From assembly GCF_000422085.1 (NCBI RefSeq), contig NC_021741.1:4650001-4714000 (forward strand): 64,000 bases of DNA, in the 5' to 3' direction. Made by a program: the position numbers and the translations under genes. Below are positions 7,220 through 21,054 of the stretch, in pieces; the first letter of the stretch is position 1, and every line of letters starts with the position of its first letter. The notes under the pieces are model-generated. The model was not told where the DNA came from. It saw nothing but the letters and a program-made list of their open reading frames with translations, and made no database searches. This stretch comes from Serratia liquefaciens ATCC 27592 (GTDB lineage: Bacteria > Pseudomonadota > Gammaproteobacteria > Enterobacterales > Enterobacteriaceae).

Positions 7220-7693
7220 TTATAGTTTATTCTTATTAATTTCATTCACAGTTACTAAAACAGCTTGAATACTTGAGTCAAGATTATCCTCATCCAACCA
7301 TGAGACACCCTTTCTTCTTAAATGGAACTTTATTGTTGGAAATAACGTTTCATCATCTAACGATATAATAACATTCAAACAGTCAACATAATTTTCACTC
7401 CACTTCTTGATTATTGAATTACAAAAAATAATTGAATATTGCAAATACTTCTCACTTACATAATCCTCTATATGGATAGAATTTACAAAACATTCGAAGG
7501 CAATTTCATCCTCGAAAACATCAGGGGTAACAGAGTTACAATAAGAAAGTAGTTTTTTAGATAAAAAACAACCATGTAACTCAACAAAACCTTGTTCAAC
7601 AATATCATTCAACTCATAAGGAAGATTGAGTTTATCTATATCTTCCCAACAAATAGATTCAAGTTGAGGGAGCATTAAATAGTTAACTAACAT
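7220..7693 (-). CDS. cdiI: putative CDI immunity protein of the orphan module
   Basis: 157 aa, mostly acidic and hydrophilic with no signal peptide or membrane segment, so cytoplasmic. It begins 1 bp after the stop of the orphan CdiA C-terminal fragment, with GGGAGAG as ribosome binding site, the standard place for a cognate immunity gene. Base composition is far more AT-rich than flanking DNA, as is common for CDI toxin/immunity cargo. I recognise no named immunity family. It should bind and neutralise the toxin end encoded at 7695 onward; this is inferred from position only. Whether it is transcribed is unclear because the module lacks the cdiB promoter. Confidence 0.65.
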   Translation of the reverse strand: MLVNYLMLPQLESICWEDIDKLNLPYELNDIVEQGFVELHGCFLSKKLLSYCNSVTPDVFEDEIAFECFVNSIHIEDYVSEKYLQYSIIFCNSIIKKWSENYVDCLNVIISLDDETLFPTIKFHLRRKGVSWLDEDNLDSSIQAVLVTVNEINKNKL

Positions 7694-7694
7694 C

Positions 7695-9172
7695 TTATTT
7701 CTCTCCCAGGTATTTAGTCATACCTTTGTCTACAGCGCTCTTGAAAGCAGGATCTTTCAACTTATCATTCACACTTTTAGGTGCATCAGGGAATGTTTGC
7801 GTAATAGGATCATAATAGTACTTGTTATTACTATTATCTTGGTAATGTATTTGGCCTGCTCTCTTTCCTGGCGCAGGGTTCTCAACATCAATTCTCTCTT
7901 TCCCTTTACCCATCCACAATGTTTTACTTGGAACAGTTGGGCCATTTATGCCGAGCATAGCGCCATCTTTATTTAGGGTATAATTAGGCTTACCAGCCTT
8001 ACTAAATCCTCCAAATGCCGAAGCCGCTGCACTCGCAACAATACCTGCCTGAACCTCATCCAGACCATATTCTTTCTGGAGTGCCTCAGAGACTTTATTT
8101 GTAGCAACAACACCTTCCGCCTGCATCTGATGCGCAAAGGTCGCCGTCAGATCGTAGACCATCTTGATCGGGATATCTTCACCCAGGGCACGGTCTATCG
8201 ACTGCTTCACCGCCAGGCTGTCAGCTAGCACATTACCGTATTTCTGCTGGCAGGTTGTCGGACTAGTTGCACAGTCGCTGATAAGCTGTTTCTGCTGCGC
8301 GGTACTCAGTTCCTCATACTTCTTAATCACGCCGCCGCAGTCACCGCCGGAAGCCTGACAGGACTTCATTTCAGCCGACCAAGCGTCTACCTGCTTACTG
8401 CTCAGATAGTTATTCTCCGTCGCATTCTTACCGGCCTGCGAAGCCGCTACCGCCCCTGCCGTACTGTCTGAAGCTATCCCCCCTGCCAGTCCTGCGGCCA
8501 GTTGGCTCAAAGCACTCACCTCCTGCTTCTCACCTTCTGTCAGGCTGTTTATGTCACGGCCCGGGAACCTTATCTCAACTATCACCCGCGCAGCCAGCTC
8601 GCCACCGCCCGCACCCACCGCACCGGCTACCGCAGACTGGTTGTTCAGTTGCGCAGTTATCGCCCCCAGTAACGCATGCGCCATTGCGTTCGCTGCCACG
8701 TTATTTTCACCGACCCGCGCCTTGATTTCTCTCGCCAGATACGGTGCCGCTCCGCTCGCCAAAGCGCCGGCCAGATTGTTCCCCGCCAACGCCTGCAGCG
8801 CGCCCGTTACCGCCTGCGCGGCCCGTTGCATATCGCTGCCGGTGCCGTATTTCTGCATCTCGGCCTGATATTCCGGCGTTTTACGCAACGCTGTCGCATC
8901 CAGCCCCGGATGCTTGTCCTTTGCCTTCTGCAAGCCATTGATATCACCCTGGGTGCGGACAATATCCATCGTCTGCCCGGCGATTTCGCCGATCAGCTGC
9001 GCCTGCTTCAGCCGGTTCTGCTCTTTCTCCTTGTCGAAGATCGGCCCGATACTGCCATTGGCGTTATCCGTATCCCGGCTCAACGCATTCACATCTTGCT
9101 GCTGGTTGGCCCCATCGCGAATAACCACGCTACCGCCCGACACCGCAGCCTTGGTCGTGCCTTCTGCATGCC
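7695..9172 (-). pseudogene. orphan CdiA C-terminal fragment (pre-toxin region plus second toxin)
   Basis: The open frame from a Met codon at 9143 encodes 482 aa; homology to cdiA extends to 9172, where it stops abruptly. The first about 245 codons are nearly identical to the pre-toxin region of the main cdiA. The VENN motif position reads TENN (GKNATENNYL). What follows is a different C-terminus of about 237 aa: an entry-type region with two Cys pairs (KSCQASGGDC, SDCATSPTTC), then a toxin-like end with GKERIDVENPAPGKRAGQIH and a KYYYDPITQTFP stretch. I do not recognise its activity. There is no signal peptide, TPS domain or promoter, so it cannot be delivered unless recombined into a full cdiA. 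Confidence 0.8.
8408..9172. repeat. 765-bp direct repeat, orphan copy
   Basis: Aligns without gaps to 10646-11410 at an offset of 2238 bp. I saw only scattered substitutions (for example TCAACTATCACC versus TCTGTTATCACC). It covers the pre-toxin domain upstream of VENN. It ends at GCATGCC on the 5' side and just past the VENN codons on the 3' side, where the toxins diverge. This is the recombination homology typical of orphan cdiA-CT modules. Confidence 0.85.
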
Positions 9173-9173
9173 T

Positions 9174-9309
9174 TTTAGAACGGCAATCTGATCATCGACA
9201 TAACTGGCTCACCGAGTACGGCATCACCAACCCGAAACCTCTGAAGATCACCGCCGCACCCGGTGTTATTCGATTACGGCGGCGAGAAGATGAGGTTTTT
9301 AGGGCTTGA
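9174..9309 (+). pseudogene. remnant of an unidentified gene 3' end, copy 2
   Basis: Starts where cdiA homology breaks off. The plus-strand frame reads LLERQSDHRHNWLTEYG then ITNPKPLKITAAPGVIRLRR then REDEVFRA and a stop at 9307-9309. Its last 30 residues match the copy at 7070-7159. It points towards the hairpin that follows the main immunity gene. No start codon of its own is present. It marks the junction between the main CDI locus and the orphan module. Confidence 0.5.
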
Positions 9310-9314
9310 TAACA

Positions 9315-9338
9315 CTCCCCCGGCCAAGGCTGGGGGAG
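9315..9338 (-). terminator. hairpin after the main cdiI
   Basis: Arms CTCCCCC (9315-9321) and GGGGGAG (9332-9338), extended by inner GCC/GGC pairs, immediately after the cdiI stop on the minus strand. No clear U-run follows, so termination strength is uncertain. Confidence 0.5.
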
Positions 9339-9342
9339 TAGA

Positions 9343-9738
9343 TTAGTTCAGAAGATCCGTTGATACATTGCCAGTATCGAAGAACTCCTTAAAGATCCTG
9401 ACAACAAGATCGAAGTCTTTTGTAAGCTGACGCTCAGGCCAGTGATTACCAAGGATAATGATACTATCTCCTGATGATGACGTATTATCCCATATGGATC
9501 TTACATCACCTCCAGACTCATCATATTCCAGCAAAGTAACTAGATAAAAACCATTCTCTGCCTCAACGCTGAGTCTCTCTGGCCCGGTATCTGGAGCATT
9601 AATAATCCTGATATTTACGCTACCGCTGCTATTCTTCAGAACATTTAAAAAATCGAGCACATCAGACCACAAAGGGGATTCATTTCTGACATATTCCTCA
9701 CCAGAACATAAACGAGAAAGCTCATATTTTATTATCAT
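9343..9738 (-). CDS. cdiI: putative CDI immunity protein for the deaminase-type toxin
   Basis: 131 aa, soluble and acidic, with no signal peptide. Its ATG overlaps the cdiA stop (ATGA), the standard coupling of cdiA and cdiI. Features include GNHWPERQ near residue 97 and a hydrophobic C-terminal helix (DLVVRIFKEFF). I have an impression of Imm1-like immunity proteins, which often accompany deaminase toxins, but cannot confirm it. It should bind the C-terminal deaminase domain and protect the cell from siblings. It remains open although cdiA upstream is broken, which would leave this strain resistant but non-inhibitory if the gene is expressed. Confidence 0.75.
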   Translation of the reverse strand: MIIKYELSRLCSGEEYVRNESPLWSDVLDFLNVLKNSSGSVNIRIINAPDTGPERLSVEAENGFYLVTLLEYDESGGDVRSIWDNTSSSGDSIIILGNHWPERQLTKDFDLVVRIFKEFFDTGNVSTDLLN

Positions 9739-10645
9739 TTTGCAGGCCCCTTATTTTCTATTTTTTTCATACCCTGCTGCCAGAACAGAACGTTACCTGT
9801 TGACTCTTCATAAATTGTCAGTGATTTAAGCCCTGCTTTTTCTGCCATGACCTTTACATCACTCAAGCAATAGTTGCAGACTTCTTTCCCTGCTACGCTC
9901 ATTGCCATTTCGCGCCCTTGAGTCATTCCCTTATCATAAGCCTGCTGGATCACTCCCACTTCCGCATGGGCTGTTCCCATGTTTCCATTAGGGTAATTTT
10001 TATCCGGGCGCTTATCTATCTTAGCCTGCACAACATCATTGATGAGAGTCGGTTTATTAAAATCAGCTAACTGTGAAGGCCTTGCTCCCTGGTTAGTATC
10101 ACTGAACTTATTACCATCAACATTTCCTTTCGCAACGACCTTCACATTCGCATCTACAATCTTGCCAAGTTGTTTCGCCGCTGCCGCACCAAGTACCGGA
10201 GTGACCGAAGCAACAATAATATCGGCTCCTTGCTTCAACTCGGCGTAATCTTTGGCTGTTGCGTAATCAACCCCTTTCGTGGTCATAAAGAAGTTGATCA
10301 GTGCGTCTTGGATCTGCTGCTGATTCTGCGCATCAACACTGGTGATATTCAGCAGGTTCACTATCTGGCCGTAAGCATCCGCGTATTGCTGGCTCACCTT
10401 CGAGTTATACGGCCCGGTTTCATACTCACCCTTGGCCGCGATAACCTCCAGTCTCGCCGCACCACAGGCCGCACTGGCTGCCGCACCATTTCCGCAGGCC
10501 TCTATCACCTTCTTGTCGCTGGCGATATCCTTTTCACGCAGTTCATTAACTTTCTGCTGGGCCTGCTCACGCTCTGCCGGGTCTTTACTGTTCTGGAGCT
10601 TCTGCTTCGCCAGCTCGAGCTCTGTCTTTTCAGACACGCTCAGGA

Positions 10646-11410
10646 AGTTATTCTCCACCGCATTCTTACCGGCCTGCGAAGCCGCTACCGCCCCTGCCGT
10701 ACTGTCTGAAGCTATCCCCCCTGCCAGTCCTGCGGCCAACTGGCTCAAAGCACTGACCTCCTGCTTCTCACCTTCTGTCAGACTGTTTATGTCACGGCCC
10801 GGGAACCTTATCTCTGTTATCACCCGCGCGGCCAGCTCGCCACCGCCCGCACCCACCGCACCGGCTACCGCAGACTGGTTGTTCAGTTGCGCAGTTATCG
10901 CCCCCAGTAACGCATGCGCCATTGCGTTCGCTGCCACGTTATTTTCACCGACCCGCGCCTTGATTTCTTTCGCCAGATACGGTGCCGCTCCGCTCGCCAA
11001 GGCGCCGGCCAGATTGTTCCCCGCCAACGCCTGCAGCGCGCCCGTTACTGCCTGTGCGGCCCGTTGCATATCGCTGCCGGTGCCGTATTTCTGCATCTCG
11101 GCCTTATATTCCGGCGTTTTACGCAACGCTGTCGCATCCAGCCCCGGATGCTTGTCCTTTGCCTTCTGCAAGCCATTGATATCACCCTGGGTGCGGACAA
11201 TATCCATCGTCTGCCCGGCGATTTCGCCGATCAGCTGCGCCTGCTTCAGCCGGTTCTGCTCTTTCTCCTTGTCGAAGATCGGCCCAATACTGCCATTGGC
11301 GTTATCCGTATCCCGGCTCAACGCATTCACATCTTGCTGCTGGTTGGCCCCATCGCGAATAACCACGCTACCGCCCGACACCGCAGCCTTGGTCGTGCCT
11401 TCTGCATGCC
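10646..11410. repeat. 765-bp direct repeat, copy inside cdiA
   Basis: Partner of 8408-9172. It encodes the pre-toxin region just upstream of VENN. Recombination between the two copies would delete 2238 bp, carrying the deaminase toxin, its cdiI, and the remnant at 9174, and would fuse the orphan toxin to cdiA in frame (2238 is divisible by 3). Confidence 0.85.
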
Positions 11411-13900
11411 CTTTATTGCCCGCGCCGGAAAGGGCCGCGCCCGCCAGATTGGTCAGCAGATCTGACCCCACCGGGCCGCCGCTGCTGATGCTACCCCCTT
11501 GATGCTCGGCCTTGAAATCCGCCTGATTATGGATATCACTGAAGCCCAGGGTGCCGGTATCAAGACGGTTTTTCTCTGGCGCGGCAGTACTGGCGATGAC
11601 CGCGCCGTCCAACTGCGTATGCTGGTTAACCTTAATATCATAGCCGCCCTTGCCGGCAAATATACCCGTTTGCTCCTGCACGCTGTCATAATTGCTGTGC
11701 AATTTGTCACGGCTCATACTCAGACTCGCCGAGCCGCCAGCACCGAAGATAGCCACACTGACACCACCACTGACGCTGGTTTGTTTGGCGTCATAGTTGT
11801 CGCTATCCTGCTGGCTTTGCATTATCAGGTTACCGCCGGTATCCACCTCCACCCTTTCGCCACTGATTTGTGCCCCTGACAAAAGGGTATCCCGGGTACT
11901 GCGCATTGACATCACGCCACCGGTGTCTATCGTCGTCTCAGTCCAAAACGTTCCATCACCATGCTCACTGCCCTGGCTTTTGTTGGCATTGGCGAAGACG
12001 CTCAATCCCGTCTGTTTTCCCACGCCAATGCTGACGCCGATATTGCCGCCGCTGCTCTTGTTACTTCCTTCGGTCTTCTGAGTATTGGCTGCGCCCAACA
12101 GCAAGATGTCACGCTCGGCGGCCAGGGTGGTGTTGCCCGCCACTTTAAACTGACTGCCGACAACGACAATGTCACCGCTGTCAGCAGTATTGCCCTTGCC
12201 GGTTGCAGTCACCTGCATATTATTACCGGCACTGAATGTTGAACCGGCGATGCTCGTTTGTTCCTGATGCTGTTTCGACGACGATTTCTGGCCGCCAAGC
12301 GAAATACTGATCCCCACCATGCTGCCTTCTTCAGTATCGGTATCGCCGACTTTTGCCAGTCGACCCGCCTGAGCGGCCTGCACGCCGGATAATGCCGCTT
12401 TGGCCCCCTGCAAGGCAGCCAGTCGACCGTCGGTCTCCTGCTTTGCCTGTTGAGCCGTTGTCACCGCACTATTAATCGCACTGCCCACCGTACCGGACAG
12501 CGCCAGACTCAGGCCACTCTGTTTCTGTTCGAAGGCTTCGTCACGACGACGAATATCCTTACCCGGGTCGATATGGACGCTATCCCCCGTCACCGATAGG
12601 TTCTTATCCGCAATCACATCTGCGCCACTGATATGCACCTTGCCGCGCGCTTCGATATCCACGCTGCCGCCGGTCGAACCTATGGTGCTGACGCTCTGGC
12701 TTTGGGTAGTGCCATCTTCGTTCAATTGATGACGAGAAGATTTACTGCCGATGGTCACGCCGATGCCGCCGCCGCTGAACACGCCGCTGGTTTTTTTCTC
12801 GTTCAGCCGGTAAAGGGATTGCTCCTCGGTGGCGGCAAAAATATCGATGTTATTATCGGCCTTTAATGTGACCTGGCCGTCCCCCACTACCGTCGAGCCC
12901 CGTACTGTCAGGTCGTTACCGGCGTTGAGTAAAACGTTGTCGCCACTTAGTACCGCTCCTTTCTCATGGGTCGCGTAGTCCTCCTCCACCGTATGGGTGG
13001 TGGTTTTGGACATAAATCCTTTTTTGACCTTAGTCTCTTCGAAGAAGCTGTAGTCCCTTTCAGCTACGCTGTCCACCACGATATTACGGTCGGCGTTAAC
13101 CACCAAATCTCCACTTACCTGTGCCTGCGTACCCTCGAAGATGGCATCCTGGCCAGCATCAACGCGCAAACTGCCGCCGGCGATTTCGGTGACCTGTTGG
13201 CGTATGGACTCCTTCACCCGCTGCTGGCCGCCGCCGTGGCTTGCCTGATACTCCCGGTTTTCCACGCTGTTAAGATTTACGTCTCGCTTGCCACTCAGTA
13301 GGATGTCGCTGTCACCCACCAACACCGCCCCCTGCGAGTTCAAATCACGCTCGGCATGTAGCGTCATATTCCCACTACTGGTGATGATGCTGCGATCGGC
13401 ACCGCTGCTGATGCGCTCGCTATTACTGGTTTTATCAATGGATTCCGTGCGATTAACAAGCAGGTTGATATCACCCGTCGCCTGCAGATTCATCGTGCCA
13501 TCAGAGGCGATCCTCGCGCCGATAACATCGATATTTTTGTCGGCACGCATGATCAACGCATCTTCTGCGCTGATGACAGCAGTATCGCCAACTTCTGTAC
13601 GCGACAGGGACAACGTCTGGCCGCCCTGAGTCCCTGTGGCATCCCACTGGCGAGCCTGAGTTTTATTGATAATGCTGCCATCCAGACTTTCAATCGCGAC
13701 CCGCTTGCCGCTGATGGTCGAGCCGATATTGCTGATATCGCCAATGGCGCTGAGCTGCAAATTGCCGTCGGCGTCGAACAGCCCCTGGTTAAGGTTGCTG
13801 ATAACCGTTTTACTATTAACGTTGAGCCGTTCACCACCTTGTAGCGAGCTGCCGTCATTACGAATACTGCCGCCGTTCAGGTTAACGATATTGCCGGTGA

Positions 13901-16900
13901 TCACGCTGCCGTTGAGCTGGGCTGCGTCACCTTTGGCCAAATAGAGTTTTGGCGCCAACACCGTCTGGCCAAATAGAGTTTTGGCGCCAACACCGTCTGG
14001 CCGTTGATCGTTACCTTCTCCCACCAGACGATGCTTTTATCCAACTGCGCAACCTGGCCCGGCGTCAGGCTAACGCCAAACTGCAAGTTCAGGCCGCTCT
14101 GCGCTTGTGCGGCGTTGTCGATCAACTGCTGCATCTGCGCCAAATCGGAGCCGATACCGTTGAGATAGCGCTTGCCGGTCTGGCTGAGCATGGCGTTGCT
14201 GATATAGCGGGTATCGAACGCCGCATCCCCCAGGAACCGATAGTCGTAGTCCGGATTAAGTCGCAGCCGATCGAGGAAGTAGGCCGAACCGATAAACTGT
14301 TTTTCATCGGTAAAACGGCGGTCGTTTTCACGCGGAGCGGCACCCGGCTGTTGGCCCAGCATGGCGTAGAGATCGTTGAACAGGCTGTTATCCAACTGCC
14401 CCAGGCCGTCCAGTTTCGGGTTGGTGGTGATCAGGTATGGGCTATTGGGATCCGCGCTGACGACAAAACGGCCGCTATCCCCGCCCGGCAGTGGGTAGTC
14501 CGCCAAGGCTACGGCGTTATTACCCAGCGAGCCCAGGGCCGCCTGCAGGTTGTCTTTCCACTCAGCTGAACCGAAGGCAACGCTCTGATCCGCCGCCAGA
14601 TCCTGCTGTTGAACACCGCTGATAGCCTCCGGCTGCTGCAGGCTGTCCAACGTTGGTCTAGCCAGGGTATGGCTCAGGCTGCCGGCGTTCGGTGTCACCA
14701 TGCTGTTGCTGATATCGTCGGTAAAACGGACGTTAACGGCACCACCGGCCTGGATCACGCTGCGATAAACAGCGGTGTTTTCGTTCTGGTACTCTGGCTG
14801 TCCGGTTAAGCGGTACTGAATGGGGGTATTGACGTTATCACGGATGTAATTGCCGCTCTTTTTGAAGTCAGCCAACGAGCGGTGCTTGTCGAAATCATAC
14901 TGTGCGATTTCGCCGTCATAACGGTAATTCAGGTATTTATTCTGGCTTCCTGCCTGGGTGCTCTCATTATTCAGCGAGCCACCACTCAGCGAAATATCAC
15001 CATTGGCCAGCATGTCGCTGGCAATATTGTCAAAACGCGTAATGGTGCCGACAATGTCCTTTCCTGCGGCAATTCGCCCAGCGCCCCCGTTCGCAGTGAC
15101 GGTTACGCTGGAGGATTCAACCAGGATCTTTTTATCAACGGCAGGCGCTTTAGGCGCTAAATAATAGTAATCATCAACGGAACCGTTGCCATGCCCCATG
15201 CTGCCGCCGGTGCGCACCGTTTTGATGTAATAACCGAGCTCGCTTTCAGCCAAATCCCCCAGTTTCATATTGACCAGCGTCTGGCCATTCCACAGCGGAT
15301 CTTTCGCCGTCGTCTGCTTTTCGGTGCTCACCGACCAGCCATCACGCTGATTGAGCAAATGCGCGGTGTTGATCTGAATATTGCCATTTTCGGTCTCGAT
15401 GGTGCCGGAGGTGTTGACGATCTCACTGTTGGCATTGCCGGCCGCGTCTTTTTGCATCCACAGGTTGTTGCCCGCCAGGACGTCGCCACGCTGGTTAGTG
15501 ATACGTTCCGCCAACAGTTGCACATCGCCACCGCCGTACAACATGCCGATGTTGAGCAGATGGTTAGCCGCGCTCAGCAGCAAATTGCCGGCGGTACCGA
15601 TAAACCCGTTATTATTGATGTCGCCACGGCTCAGCAACTGTACCCAGCCACCCGACTGCAGACTGGCGGTGCTGGTTTGCGTGATGCCGGCGGCTTCGAT
15701 CCGCACGTCGCCGCTTCCGCCGCGCAGGGTACCGGCATGTGTCAGTTGGCCAGCGCTACGCACATCGATGCTCTGGCCCTGGAGGGTACCCAGCAGCACA
15801 ACATCGCCGTCGCTGCTCAGGGTCAGCTTTTTACCTGCCGCCAAAGTGCCATTCTGGGTGAAGGCTTCCTTTAACGTCAGCGTAATATTGCCCAGCGCCA
15901 CCAGTTGACCGTACTGATTCAGCAGGCTGCTCACCAATGTCGCATCGCCACCGCTGAACAGCTTGCCGTTCTGGTGGTTATCAATCTGCCGCGCGTTAAC
16001 GCTCATCTGGCTTGTCGCCAATAGCGTGCCGGTATTATCCAGGCTGCCTGTCTGCAGCGTTAAATTGCCGCCCTGCAGGGTTCCCATATTATTCAGAACA
16101 TCGAGCGTAAACCGGGTATCGCCGATACCGCTCAACGTGCCGCTGTTATCCAACCGGGTGCCCCTGAACGTCAGGCTATTGGCCTGCAGCCAGCCGAGGT
16201 TATTCAGCGAAGGCGCTTGAAGATCCAGTGCGCCGCCGACGATCATTTTGCCTGAGTTGCTCAACTGGCGATCCAACCGCAATACGCTGCCGCCATCTCC
16301 CTGCAGATCCCCAGCGTTGTTTAGCTCTGCCGCCTCTACCCGCAGGGTTCCCAGGCTGCGCACCGTGCCACCAGCCAGGTTATGGAATATGCCACTCAGC
16401 TTGGCCTCCAGATTTTTCTGTCCCTGCAGCCTGCCGGTGTTGGTCAGTTCAGCGGCTTTTAACGTCAACTCGCCCGCCTGTACATGGCCCTGATTGTTCA
16501 AGGTCTGCGCCGTCAGATCCGTTTTCCCACTGGAGAAGATCTTGCTGCTGGTTTCCGTCTTCAGGCTGTCACTGAGATCCAAATGGATCCCTCCCGTGCC
16601 CGCCTGCAACACGCCTTTATGATCCAACTGCTGAGCCGCCAGCCTGATGCTGCCGCCCTGCCATACTCCGTCGTTTTCGACTATCGCCGCCCCTACAGTC
16701 AGTTCCCCTTCGCTGAGCAGCTTGCCGCTTACTGTGTTGTTCAGATCCTTTTGCAACTGCAACGCCAACTGCCGTAGACCAATCAGATTGCCGCTGTTGT
16801 TCACCGTGTTGGCCGTGACGGTGGTCGCCGCACCCTGCGCTTCCCCCTGATTGCTGATGCTGTCGGCCGAAAGCTGTAATGCGCCTTCGCTCAATACCTT

Positions 16901-19354
16901 GCCGTCGTTATTCAGCGTGGCAGCCGTCAGTTTCAGTGGCCCCTGGCTCAGCACTTGCCCACTGTTGTGCAACGTCTGTTCGACCGTTGCCGTCAGCCCA
17001 TTTTCCCCCAGGGTGCTGCCAGTGTTGGCCCAACCTTGTACGCCGATATCAATGTTCTGTCCCTGTAGCTTACCGGCGTTATTCAACCGCTCCCCCTGCA
17101 GCGCCAACGCCCCCCCGGCCAGCACTCGCCCTGCCACGCGGTTTTGCAGATCTTTCGCTGTAATCTCCACCAGCCCCTTGGCCTGTATCAGCCCACTGTT
17201 CTCCACATCTTGCGCCGTGAGCTTCATGCTGTTGGCCGCGAGGGTGCCGGTATTGTTCAACGTTGGAGCCTTTAACGTCAGCGTATTGTCCGCCACCAGC
17301 TTGCCCTGGTTGTCCACCTTTTCACTAAAGCTCAGCTCCACCCCGGAGGCGCCGATCTGCCCGCTGTTGACCAGGGTAGTGCCATTCACCGTCAGCCGTT
17401 TGCCGGCCAGCAGTTCGCCTTGTTGATCGAGCCGATTTACCTTCAGCGTGAAGCCATTATCGGCCTGCAGATGCCCTCGCTGGCGCAGTGAACCACCGCG
17501 CCAGTCAATGTTAAGTGCGTTGATTTGGCCGCTGTTATCGGCAGTCGCAGCGGAAAAGTTCAAATCCCCCAAGGTGTTAAACACGCCCGCCAAATGCGCA
17601 TCCTGCGTAATTTTTAACGCCATGCCCTGTTTGGCCTGGGTGCGGGCGCCTGCGGTGGTCGACAAATTCTGGCCGTCCATCGTCAGGGCGAGTTCGCTGG
17701 AAAGCAGCCCGCCCAACCGCACGTCATTAGCCTGAATGACAATATCGCTATCACTCAGCAGCGATGAGCCTGCAGCTGTGCTCAGTATGCCGCCGTTGAG
17801 GGTGATGCCCTGTTTGCCGCTGGCGCTGCCCGCCAGCAAGAATTCCCCGGCCTGTACGGTTAAGGGGCCATCTGCAGACAGGGAACCTGCCACGTTAAGC
17901 TTGTCGCGCACGCGCAGCTCAAGGTGCTGCCTGGCCCCGATGGCCCCCTGGTTATCGACGCTTTTGGCCGTGATCCGCTGAACACCGCCCGCTTGCAACT
18001 GCCCCCGATTATCAAGCCGTTCGCCTATCAGCGTCTGCATGCCCTGTGCCTGTATCCGCCCGCTGTTGTCCAGGCTCTGTGTCTGAATGTGGCTGTCGCG
18101 GTTGGCGGCCAGCTGGCCGCTGCTGCTGAGGTTATTGGCTTGCAGGTGCAGATCGCGCCCGGCGGTCAGAACGCCCTGCCAGTCGCCGTCACCGTTAAGC
18201 GTCATATTGATGTCACCTTCGGCAGTCAGGCTGCTGTCTTTAGCGCTGCTCAGGGTGTCTGCGGTCAGCTGCAGTTTGCCGTCAGTACTGGCTTTGCCCG
18301 CCTGCAATTTGCCTGCGGCGCTAAGCTGCATATCGCCTTTGGCGTTCAACACGGCCTTGTCCAGGGCCAGTTCACCCCGGCTGTTCAGGCTCATCGCCTG
18401 GCCGGCCTTATGGTTGCCGCTCAGCGTCATTCCTGCCGCCGTAGCATTCAGGCTCCCCTCTGCCAGCGTATTATTCAGCCGCAGTTGCCCATTGGCATCC
18501 AATTGAATATCGCCCTCACGCGCGTTGAGGTTGCCGAGGTTGATCCCAACGCCTTTTTCACTGGAGACCAGGTGGATACGGTTGGCGTACATGCCACCAA
18601 GCGCACCAGTATCAATCGCCACCTTGGGCGCGTCGCTACTGCCTGCAATCGCCGTGGCCTTGCCGGTAGCATCTACCCGGTTGGCCCCGAGCGTGATGCT
18701 GAGGTCCTTGGCGTGCAGTTGCGCGTTAATCTCGGTTGCGCGGGCGATCAAGGCAAATTTTTCGCTCTTGCCGGCGTCCAGCCCGTTACCCTGAATGGTG
18801 ATTGCCCCCTGGGTGACTTCCAACGCCTGCAGCTTGCCGTCAGCACCCAGCACCGGCTTGCCGGTCGTCAGCGTCGCGTTGGGGGTATTGATAAAGCCGC
18901 AGCCGTCGCAGGTGATGCCATAGGGGTTGGCTACCATCACGCTGGCCTGCTTGCCCGCGACCTCCAGGTAACCGCGCAGCTGTGAGGGGTTCGGTGCCAC
19001 CACCTCATTGATGATGCCCTGCGCTTCCCCGCCGGCCTGCAGGTTGGGGTTGTTCTGGATCAGCCCGCCAAGCTGGCTCTGATTGAGCTGGCCAGTGGCG
19101 TTGTTGAGGATCGTCCCCTCTTTGCCAACGTTGAAATCGTTGTATTTGTTATGCGAAATACCAGCCTGGTTCGGCGTGGCAATATTGATCACCGGCACAC
19201 CATTGGCGGCCTGATCCACTCGGGTATTGCCTTCGGCTACGTTAATGCCCTCGGCCAGTACAGGCAGCAACGGTTGCCCCGCCAGCAATGTGCACAGGGT
19301 ATAGCTCAGCAGGCGCTGCGTGGTATTAAGGTTTTGATTATCACTATGTTTCAT
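13901..19354 (-). CDS. cdiA: CdiA/filamentous haemagglutinin-type exoprotein, 5' part truncated by frameshift
   Basis: 1817 codons. Residues 1-35 are the signal region ([22 protein letters not shown]). About 40-300 form the TPS secretion domain recognised by CdiB, with [19 protein letters not shown] and [16 protein letters not shown]. About 300-1340 are haemagglutinin (FHA-1) repeats. About 1370-1790 is a non-repeat region where receptor-binding domains lie in known CdiA proteins. The frame then shifts at the tandem duplication and ends after 26 foreign residues. Without one copy the gene would run to 9735 and give 3195 aa. The truncated product could be secreted and might still act as an adhesin, but lacks FHA-2 and toxin. 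It starts 26 bp after the cdiB stop. Confidence 0.9.
13935..13998. repeat. exact 32-bp tandem duplication that frameshifts cdiA
   Basis: Copy 1 is 13935-13966 and copy 2 is 13967-13998; they are identical, and 4 more bases (GGCC) of a third copy follow. 32 is not a multiple of 3. Deleting one copy rejoins the two cdiA frames as ...[20 protein letters not shown]... and gives 9588 bp, exactly 3196 codons with stop. This could be a slipped-strand event, a phase-variable switch or an assembly error. Confidence 0.95.
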
Positions 19355-19380: not shown

Positions 19381-21054
19381 TTAAATAACGATATTGACCC
19401 GGTAATAGACCGAAACACGATCCGGCTTCATTCCATCCGGGTAAGCCAGTGGCCAGCCGACGGTCAGTTGACTGCTGAAATAGCGGCTACGGCTCCCCAG
19501 GCCCAGGGCGCCGCCCCACAGCGTCCCCGAGGCATTGGCATCCAGCGCGTCATGGTGCAGATAGCCGCCGTCTACCGCCGCCATGGCGTTAATACTGCCG
19601 ACGTACGGCAAGGTCACCAGCGCCCGGTTAACTTCATTACGCCAGTAGCCGCCCTTGTCACCGGAAAGATACTGCTCCTTGAAACCACGTACAGAGCTCT
19701 CACCACCGATGGTCAGACGTTCGCTGCCGTATAAGCGGTGATTGCTCCACTGGCTGTACAGGCTGGTGAGGTAAGTCCAATCTTGCGCCAGCGGCAGGTA
19801 GTAGCTGCCGGAAAGCGAAAGTTTATGAAATTCGGCGCGGGGGGCTTCCTTGATTTTGCCGCTGTCGTTCTCTGCCCCTAGCCACGGCACCCCGCGGCTG
19901 TAAGCCGGGTTCAGGGTGGCGAAACCGCCCAACAGCTTTTGGCTGTGGCTAACACCCAGCGTCACGCTGGTCAGTTTGCGGCTGCTGCTTTCCAGCCGGG
20001 TGTCATTGAGATAATTGCGATTGATGCGGTGCGTGACCCCCAGCGACAGGCCGGTTTTCATTTCGCCGTCACGGAACAACACCCGCGAAACGCCCAACCG
20101 ATGGATCTGGCTGTCACCGCTGGAACGCCAGTCAAAGCCCTGGTTGTTGAGGGTAGCCAGGTAGTCGCTGTAGGAATAGTTGTAATCCAGCGTCCAGTAG
20201 CCGTAAGGCAAGCTGAGGCCGGCCTGCACGCTGCGCGCATTGTGATCGTTGGCAAAATCGCTGCTACGGGCACCGGCGACAAACCATTGATCCGCCAGCC
20301 CCAGCAGGTTATTGCCGGTCAGCGATCCGTTGATCTGACCGGCACCGGTACTTTTTTGCCCGCTGTTGTCGAACCCTGCCCCCAGCGTCAGAGGAAACTC
20401 AGGTTTGGCGCTCAGATTGACCACCGAGTAACCCGGCCGGCTACCCGGCAGAATTTCTATCTGTACCGGCTGCTGACGCAGTCGGTTGATCTGTTCCATG
20501 CCCTGTTCGATATCACGCAGATTAAGAATATTGCCCTGCAGGCCCGGGAAGACCATTTTCAGCATGCGATCGTCTCGTTGCTCCAGCAGAACGTTCTCCA
20601 GCTTGCCCTCCAGCACCAGCAACCGCAGCTCGCCGCGCGACAGATCCTGTTCGGTCAGGAATGCGCGGCTGGTGATATAGCCACGGTTGATATACCAATC
20701 GGAGATCTGCTGCACCAGCGTCTGGACTTGGCCCAGATTCAGACATTGCTGCAGATAAGGCTGCGTGAGTTTACGTTGTGCACTGGCGGGCAGATGAGCC
20801 GCGCCTTCCAGCCGGATATGGGTGATGCTAAAACAAGGTCCGCCAGCGTTGGCGTTGGGTGTTGCAGGGGTCGGCAAGGCCGGCGTCAGGCTACGTTGCA
20901 GCTCCTGCCGCTGCTGCTGGTTTTGCTCCAGCAATTCACGCTGCTGTTGTTGAATGGTGTCACGATCTGCCGGGCTAAGCAGGTTAGCGCCCGCCGCGGA
21001 GGAAAAGAAAATGCACAGCAAAGCTGTCGAAAGCCGTTGAGTCACTGAATCCAT
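19381..21054 (-). CDS. cdiB: two-partner secretion outer-membrane transporter CdiB (FhaC/ShlB family)
   Basis: 557 aa. A signal peptide (residues 1-23) precedes a Gln-rich linker typical of the family ([18 protein letters not shown]), two POTRA domains (about 75-230) and a 16-strand barrel. Barrel motifs include VRGF ([20 protein letters not shown]) and the final strand [11 protein letters not shown]. It should translocate CdiA across the outer membrane by binding its TPS domain with the POTRA domains. First gene of cdiB-cdiA-cdiI, reading away from tldD. It appears intact, so the secretion half of the system is probably functional. Confidence 0.92.

What the first reader, a model, noticed from the sequence alone, without database searches (positions are those of the whole stretch)
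13935..13998. Exact 32-bp tandem duplication splits an otherwise intact cdiA
Two identical adjacent 32-bp units shift the cdiA frame in the middle of the gene. Removing one restores 3195 uninterrupted codons across 9.6 kb, so the break must be very recent, reversible, or an assembly error. If real, the cell secretes a shortened toxin-less adhesin while keeping immunity, a state that slippage could reverse. That would make a CDI system phase-variable.
Basis: partly seen in the sequence, partly recalled or inferred. Interest (0 to 1): 0.8.

Follow-up and report, generated by a model that had tools for sequence, protein, structure and literature searches.

The report
Recent tandem duplication breaks cdiA
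In one Serratia strain a 32-letter stretch sits twice in a row inside a gene for an antibacterial surface weapon and cuts the gene in two; it looks like a fresh copying slip, and nothing yet shows that it works as an evolved on/off switch.

Summary
Window 13934-14002 holds an exact 32-bp tandem duplication (37 bp of perfect self-match) that shifts the frame in the middle of cdiA of a Serratia liquefaciens-like chromosome. Both halves are otherwise open; cdiB and cdiI are intact. It is the only exact tandem array found in 463,001 bp sampled from this genome. All six genus genomes whose sequence spans the site have one unit, and a near-identical S. liquefaciens protein (cluster of 229) runs uninterrupted through it. 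The FHA-2 region behind the break shows no decay (dN/dS 0.16-0.17, against 0.06-0.16 in front), though a 220-codon stretch before the toxin is at 0.34. The lesion is probably recent and strain-specific. Best explanation: slippage across a 5-bp GGCCA microhomology, a generic loss-of-function mutation that could in principle revert. I found no support for an evolved phase switch: no multi-copy repeat, no examined genome with two units, and an unremarkable microhomology. 'Secretes a shortened adhesin' is doubtful: the break comes about 120 residues before the shortest truncation reported as exported. Expression of immunity is untested. The strain has a second, uninterrupted CDI locus. An assembly error cannot be excluded without reads.

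The parts
13934..13965 (.). first 32-bp unit (plus-strand order)
13966..13997 (.). second 32-bp unit, identical
13998..14002 (.). 5 bp that continue the periodicity (GGCCA on the coding strand); the microhomology that bounds one unit in relatives
13901..19354 (-). front part of cdiA, 1,817 codons; the last 20 residues are out-of-frame tail
18476..19228 (-). TPS secretion domain (PF05860)
14495..15445 (-). region matching the receptor-binding region of E. coli CdiA (residues 1304-1620 here)
13964..14392 (-). conserved block between receptor region and FHA-2, residues 1655-1797 (YP-like by position); the break sits at its end
9735..14024 (-). rear part of cdiA, 1,429 codons, in another frame: FHA-2, pretoxin and toxin
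11775..12299 (-). best stretch of hemagglutinin repeat (PF13332) in the FHA-2 region
10638..10787 (-). PT-VENN pretoxin domain (PF04829)
9750..10148 (-). C-terminal putative cytidine deaminase toxin domain (PF24241)
9343..9738 (-). probable immunity gene cdiI, 131 aa (DUF6911, PF21852), intact
19381..21054 (-). cdiB transporter, 557 aa (POTRA, ShlB), intact

Best explanation
A spontaneous short tandem duplication, formed by replication slippage between two 5-bp GGCCA copies that lie 32 bp apart in the ordinary cdiA coding sequence, has recently interrupted cdiA in this strain. Translation ends at about residue 1797 plus 20 out-of-frame residues, so FHA-2, pretoxin and deaminase toxin are not made as part of CdiA; cdiB and cdiI stay intact as genes. 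The lesion is ordinary loss of function. Like other short tandem duplications it can in principle be lost again by the same slippage, but I found no evidence that the locus evolved to switch. Shown: the array, the frames, the single unit in the relatives examined, lack of decay. Inferred: slippage as the origin, loss of toxin delivery, possible reversion.
For: One unit in 6 of 6 Serratia relatives that span the site, and the GGCCA pair at 32-bp spacing already present in 5 of those 6. Near-identical uninterrupted protein in S. liquefaciens, 1771 of 1797 residues identical, running through the site. No other lesion in either half, in cdiB or in cdiI. dN/dS against G007 and G006: 0.157 and 0.168 in the first 900 codons behind the break; in front 0.139 and 0.155 (first 1,300 codons), 0.063 and 0.077 (next 483). 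Window-lineage changes are 9 nonsynonymous to 15 synonymous behind the break and 22 to 36 in front. Only exact array in 463,001 bp. Precedent: short duplications inside pneumococcal capsule genes (PMC4022640 and PMC4243769, passages).
Against: No reads were available, so an assembly error is not excluded. In the 220 codons before the toxin (rear codons 900-1120) dN/dS against G007 and G006 is higher, 0.345 and 0.340, which could be read as relaxed constraint; against three more distant relatives the same stretch gives 0.21-0.24, and the lineage counts, which include most of it, show no excess. The toxin ends of G006 and G007 are too different to judge. A cluster at 90% identity (229 members) could hide further strains with the same split. 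I have no measurement of any slippage rate here.
Confidence: 0.76

Rival explanations
1. Assembly or consensus error: the cell has one unit and an uninterrupted cdiA.
For: No reads available; the six spanning relatives and the conspecific cluster representative have one unit.
Against: Exact 32-bp insertions are not the usual error of long-read consensus (own knowledge), and no other exact array occurs in 463,001 bp of the assembly. The assembly is 2 contigs, 100% complete.
Confidence: 0.13
2. A selected toxin-less adhesin: the strain gains from CdiA that binds cells but delivers no toxin, while immunity is kept. (This does not exclude the best explanation of origin.)
For: Other toxin-less CdiA occur: P0124 (S. 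liquefaciens, cluster of 44) ends in a 47-aa unmatched, R/K-rich tail before the PT domain; P0152/P0007 lie on contigs of the same length, split around residue 1612-1635. Toxin-less cells that keep immunity should escape the surveillance described in PMC4927057 (inference from passages). E. coli CdiA cut after 1930 still adheres (PMC5371414).
Against: The break is about 120 residues or more before that shortest working truncation, and shorter E. coli truncations are poorly exported and degraded. No clear decay yet, so no time for selection to show. Breaks in other Serratia fall at different places. The strain has a second, uninterrupted CDI locus.
Confidence: 0.12
3. An evolved phase-variable CDI locus that toggles unit number at this site.
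For: The microhomology is conserved in 5 of 6 relatives; a 37-bp perfect tandem match should be unstable; duplications are reported as reversible in pneumococcal capsule genes and homopolymer frameshifts reverted in an E. coli capsule gene (PMC13410964, passages).
Against: Two units in none of 6 relatives; 10 of 10 listed plasmid homologues (of 81 records) span 31-36 bases less than the query, as expected for one unit. 1,144 direct repeats of at least 5 bp at 10-100 bp spacing in the sister cdiA, so this one is unremarkable. No di- to hexanucleotide repeat in cdiA. A search for CDI with phase variation found 10 papers; I read passages of one of them (PMC6211672) and only the listing of the rest, and none of that describes a slippage-switched cdiA.
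Confidence: 0.05
4. The split gene is still read through by ribosomal frameshifting in the overlap.
For: The two frames overlap for 124 bases.
Against: No heptamer of the kind three identical bases, then AAA or TTT, then any base, in 13890-14060; the six relatives need no recoding at this site.
Confidence: 0.01

Closest known systems
Spontaneous short tandem duplications in pneumococcal capsule genes (cap3A, cap8E, tts; Waite et al. 2001, 2003; seen only as references and passages in PMC4022640 and PMC4243769; the gene name cap3A is recalled)
   Same: A duplication inside an open reading frame that abolishes the product and is in principle reversible
   Different: There, phase variation is reported; here one static sequence, another gene and another phylum, and no switching data
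CdiBAI contact-dependent growth inhibition systems (E. coli EC93/EC536 type)
   Same: cdiB-cdiA-cdiI order, TPS domain, receptor region, YP-like block, FHA-2, PT-VENN, C-terminal toxin and adjacent immunity gene
   Different: cdiA is split; putative deaminase toxin with DUF6911 immunity
Contingency loci with simple sequence repeats (Neisseria, Haemophilus type; recalled)
   Same: Slippage could change the frame
   Different: One duplication instead of a multi-copy repeat; no variation among the relatives examined

Membership tests
CDI (CdiBAI) locus | TpsB transporter next to a TPS-domain giant exoprotein with PT-VENN and a C-terminal toxin, followed by a small immunity gene | tested here: met
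   cdiA is split between two frames
CDI (CdiBAI) locus | working toxin delivery | not testable with these tools
   cdiA interrupted, so expected absent
Simple-repeat contingency locus | multi-copy short repeat in or before the gene | tested here: not met
   two units of 32 bp; no di- to hexanucleotide repeat at the thresholds used; longest homopolymers 7 bases at three places in 9735-19354; the region before the gene was not scanned for short repeats apart from TRF
Simple-repeat contingency locus | unit number varies between related genomes | tested here: not met
   0 of 6 spanning relatives have two units; the conspecific representative has one; no strain-level DNA sample was available
Duplication-based reversible inactivation (pneumococcal type) | exact in-gene tandem duplication that shifts the frame | tested here: met
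Duplication-based reversible inactivation (pneumococcal type) | observed reversion in culture | not testable with these tools
   needs reads or colonies

The most novel reading that the evidence does not exclude
CDI in Serratia is switched by short tandem duplications: at a conserved coding microhomology next to the YP-like block, slippage repeatedly creates cells that keep immunity but carry no toxin, and slippage brings the toxin back, so a population holds a reversible mixture of armed and disarmed siblings.
Probability: 0.06. Interest if true: 0.65.

Novelty: new member of a known kind. Interest (0 to 1): 0.27.

Why it matters
If the array is real and unstable, it would give a natural system in which a CDI toxin is lost while the immunity gene stays, a state that sibling surveillance should not punish, and so a test of how CDI is maintained. 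As it stands it is a well-documented example of a fresh, probably strain-specific pseudogene with a clear likely mutational mechanism, and a warning against reading one genome as phase variation.

Tried and rejected
Recoding: no canonical slippery heptamer in the overlap. Special microhomology: rejected, since 5-bp pairs at 10-100 bp spacing number 1,144 in the sister cdiA. Clustering of breaks at one hot spot in other Serratia CdiA: breaks map near residues 1612-1635, upstream of 1658, 1880 and elsewhere, and the length limits of the search bias which are seen, so no claim. I first placed the P0152/P0007 break near 1757 in a note, counting in P0152's own numbering; one search puts it at 1612-1635 of the reference. 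An own promoter for cdiI: 3 promoter-like sites in 9100-14300 on both strands against 4.1 expected by chance; the one on the minus strand at 9760-9731 overlaps the cdiI start. An EC93-type protein to place residue 1931 directly: none among the proteins held, so the position rests on an offset. Literature: 9 searches, otherwise seen as listings. Papers opened for passages that did not bear on slippage in cdiA: PMC11278526 (a single-base split of an orphan cdiA in Proteus), PMC8510554 (neither term found in the text) and PMC6211672.

Full report
What is there. The window lies in a 5.28-Mb, two-contig genome (G000) of the genus Serratia (relatives named). The front half of the split protein is 99% identical to a Serratia liquefaciens protein (1771 of 1797 residues), so the strain is S. 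liquefaciens or very close (inference). On the minus strand the order is cdiB (19381-21054), front part of cdiA (13901-19354), rear part of cdiA (9735-14024) and a 131-aa DUF6911 gene as probable cdiI (9343-9738). Pfam finds a TPS domain in front, and hemagglutinin repeats, PT-VENN and a putative cytidine deaminase domain behind. Between the parts lies an exact tandem array, 13934-14002, period 32.

Is it more than chance. 100 shuffles of the window gave no match to the unit. I scanned the window plus 20 stretches of the same genome, 463,001 bp, for exact tandem arrays of period 7 to 300 with a self-match of at least one period and at least 14 bases; this is the only one. In eight further regions (seven relatives and the second cdi region of this genome) there is one site only, a short 8-bp array outside cdiA in L020.

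Relatives. Of 30 genus genomes searched with 800 bp around the array, nine matched, one being the window's own. Two of the other eight match only short pieces that do not reach the array. The remaining six (G005, G006, G007, G017, G018, G019) span it and carry one unit. In G006 and G007, the closest, cdiA is one frame of 3,243 and 3,187 codons stop to stop. Of 81 plasmid records that match at 60-80% identity, the 10 listed rows have a record span 31-36 bases shorter than the query span, as expected for one unit; the other 71 were not shown. The conspecific protein P0123, listed for a cluster of 229, runs through the site without interruption. The cluster is at 90% identity, so single members with the split could be hidden in it. 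No strain-level DNA collection of this species was at hand.

Age. Two identical 32-bp copies say little by themselves, since 0 of 32 differences still allows about 9% divergence. The stronger evidence lies behind the break: no premature stop and no further frameshift up to the gene's own stop. dN/dS in the first 900 codons there, against G007 and G006, is 0.157 and 0.168; in front it is 0.139 and 0.155 for the first 1,300 codons and 0.063 and 0.077 for the next 483. Against this reading, the following 220 codons (900-1120) give 0.345 and 0.340; the same stretch against G018, G019 and G005 gives 0.210, 0.235 and 0.228. The toxin ends of G006 and G007 are too different to judge. Changes assigned to the window lineage are 9 nonsynonymous to 15 synonymous in the first 1,090 codons behind the break and 22 to 36 in front, the same ratio (only codons where both sisters agree, 1,011 and 1,678; 73 and 134 changes could not be polarised and are left out). 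Changes on the sister side were 14 to 7 behind and 17 to 24 in front, so these counts are small and noisy. The rear FHA-2/PT part differs from four close C-terminal proteins (P0003, P0005, P0009, P0010) by 0.9-1.4% over 706-909 aligned residues, from P0123 by 3.2% over 1,098, and from P0124, which has another FHA-2, by 36%; the front part differs from P0123 by 26 of 1,797. The toxin end is conserved with G018: dN 0.042, dS 0.846 over 278 codons. So the gene was most likely under constraint until recently.

Mechanism of origin. In five of six relatives the single unit is already bounded by GGCCA copies 32 bp apart, extended to GGCCAAA or TGGCCAAA in some. Slippage between such copies during replication would give exactly this array, including the extra 5 bp. 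This is inference from the sequence. The microhomology is not special: the sister cdiA (G006) has 1,144 direct repeats of at least 5 bp at 10-100 bp spacing, 480 of them at spacings that are not multiples of three.

Consequence. E. coli CdiA is described as TPS, FHA-1, receptor-binding region, YP domain, FHA-2, pretoxin and toxin, with the YP domain likely responsible for secretion arrest and FHA-2 for translocation (PMC9086364, passages). I used three E. coli proteins that carry all four published EC536 boundary residues as a ruler. The receptor region maps to residues 1304-1620 here. The break at 1797 falls at the end of a block (1655-1797) that is 66% identical to E. coli, with 4.9% Tyr and 3.5% Pro; the receptor region just before it is as rich (5.0% and 4.0%) and the FHA regions are poor (1.0% or less), so 'YP-like' rests on position and conservation more than on composition. 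The published EC93 truncation that is exported and adhesive ends at 1930, which a constant offset of 32 places near 1915 here, or further back if the offset grows. [quoted passage not shown] the original paper was not opened). The product here would be about 120 residues shorter, so a stable secreted adhesin is possible but not the default expectation. For immunity, cdiI is intact; relatives in four other genomes are 84-94% identical, with two more at 51-52% (7 of 30 genomes, own included). A promoter scan gave no excess over chance, so its expression behind a long untranslated stretch is uncertain. The strain also has a second CDI locus in one open frame of 3,179 codons with TPS, hemagglutinin repeats, PT-VENN and an Ntox25 toxin domain, beside an ShlB-type transporter frame of 590 codons, so it need not be CDI-negative as a whole.

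Phase variation. A single duplication with 37 bp of perfect match may be lost again by slippage; pneumococcal capsule genes give the precedent (PMC4022640 passages, which expects reversion of at most about 1e-5 for a 9-bp insertion; PMC4243769 passages, 'spontaneous, reversible sequence duplication'), and frameshifts in a run of A in an E. coli capsule gene reverted under selection (PMC13410964, passages). But I found nothing that marks this locus as an evolved switch: no di- to hexanucleotide repeat in cdiA and no homopolymer over 7, no examined relative with two units. In the papers found with CDI and phase variation together (10 papers; passages read in one, PMC6211672, the rest by listing only) I saw no slippage-switched cdiA. 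Loss of the toxin while the immunity gene stays should not be punished by sibling surveillance (inference from PMC4927057 passages), which could explain why such mutants survive without any switch.

Other broken CdiA. Interrupted or toxin-less CdiA is seen repeatedly in the genus: G017 (frames of 2,335 and 1,114 codons), P0124 (cluster of 44, S. liquefaciens, unmatched 47-aa tail before the PT domain), P0152 with P0007 (contigs of the same length, 197,343), and P0147 (19-aa unmatched tail). The lesions differ in place. On the other side, by my count the rows listed (a cut-off list) hold 29 distinct frames of 2,900 codons or more without a stop. This fits recurrent ordinary loss better than a dedicated mechanism.

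Verdict. The best reading is a recent, probably strain-specific slippage duplication that disables cdiA; phase variation is a testable but unsupported extension, and an assembly error is the main unexcluded alternative.

Noticed in passing
7220-9143: Downstream of cdiI lies an orphan-like cdiA-CT frame (7695-9143, 482 codons; PT-VENN only in Pfam, nothing in NCBIfam, no PDB match at E 0.01) with a 157-aa frame without Pfam or NCBIfam match next to it (7220-7693), a candidate displaced toxin/immunity pair.
   Followed up: partly
P0124, S. liquefaciens cluster of 44: A CdiA of 2,798 aa with a different FHA-2 region ends in a 47-aa R/K-rich unmatched tail before the PT domain: a second toxin-less CdiA type in the same species.
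   Followed up: partly
P0152 and P0007 (contigs of 197,343 bp): Front and rear parts of a CdiA on contigs of the same length (P0152 named unclassified Serratia), split around residue 1612-1635 of the reference, another independent break in the middle of the gene.
   Followed up: partly
L022 about 9050-9450 (G017): cdiA of this genome (contig length as S. proteamaculans CCUG 14510) is split into frames of 2,335 and 1,114 codons by a different small lesion in the rear part.
   Followed up: partly
L055:3161-12700 and 13216-14988 (G000:C1 about 4445160-4456987): A second CDI locus in the same genome: one open frame of 3,179 codons with TPS, PT-VENN and Ntox25, beside an ShlB-type transporter frame of 590 codons.
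   Followed up: partly
9761, 12791 and 17110: Three 7-base homopolymers (two of T, one of C on the plus strand) inside cdiA, ordinary possible sites of single-base slippage.
   Followed up: no
L020:12903-12936 (G018): An exact array of an 8-bp unit (about four copies) shortly after the cdiI homologue of this genome.
   Followed up: no
9343-9738: The DUF6911 protein next to the deaminase toxin has relatives in six other Serratia genomes and a weak match to an uncharacterised solved structure (6anz, E 5e-6), so DUF6911 may be an immunity family for Deam_C toxins.
   Followed up: partly
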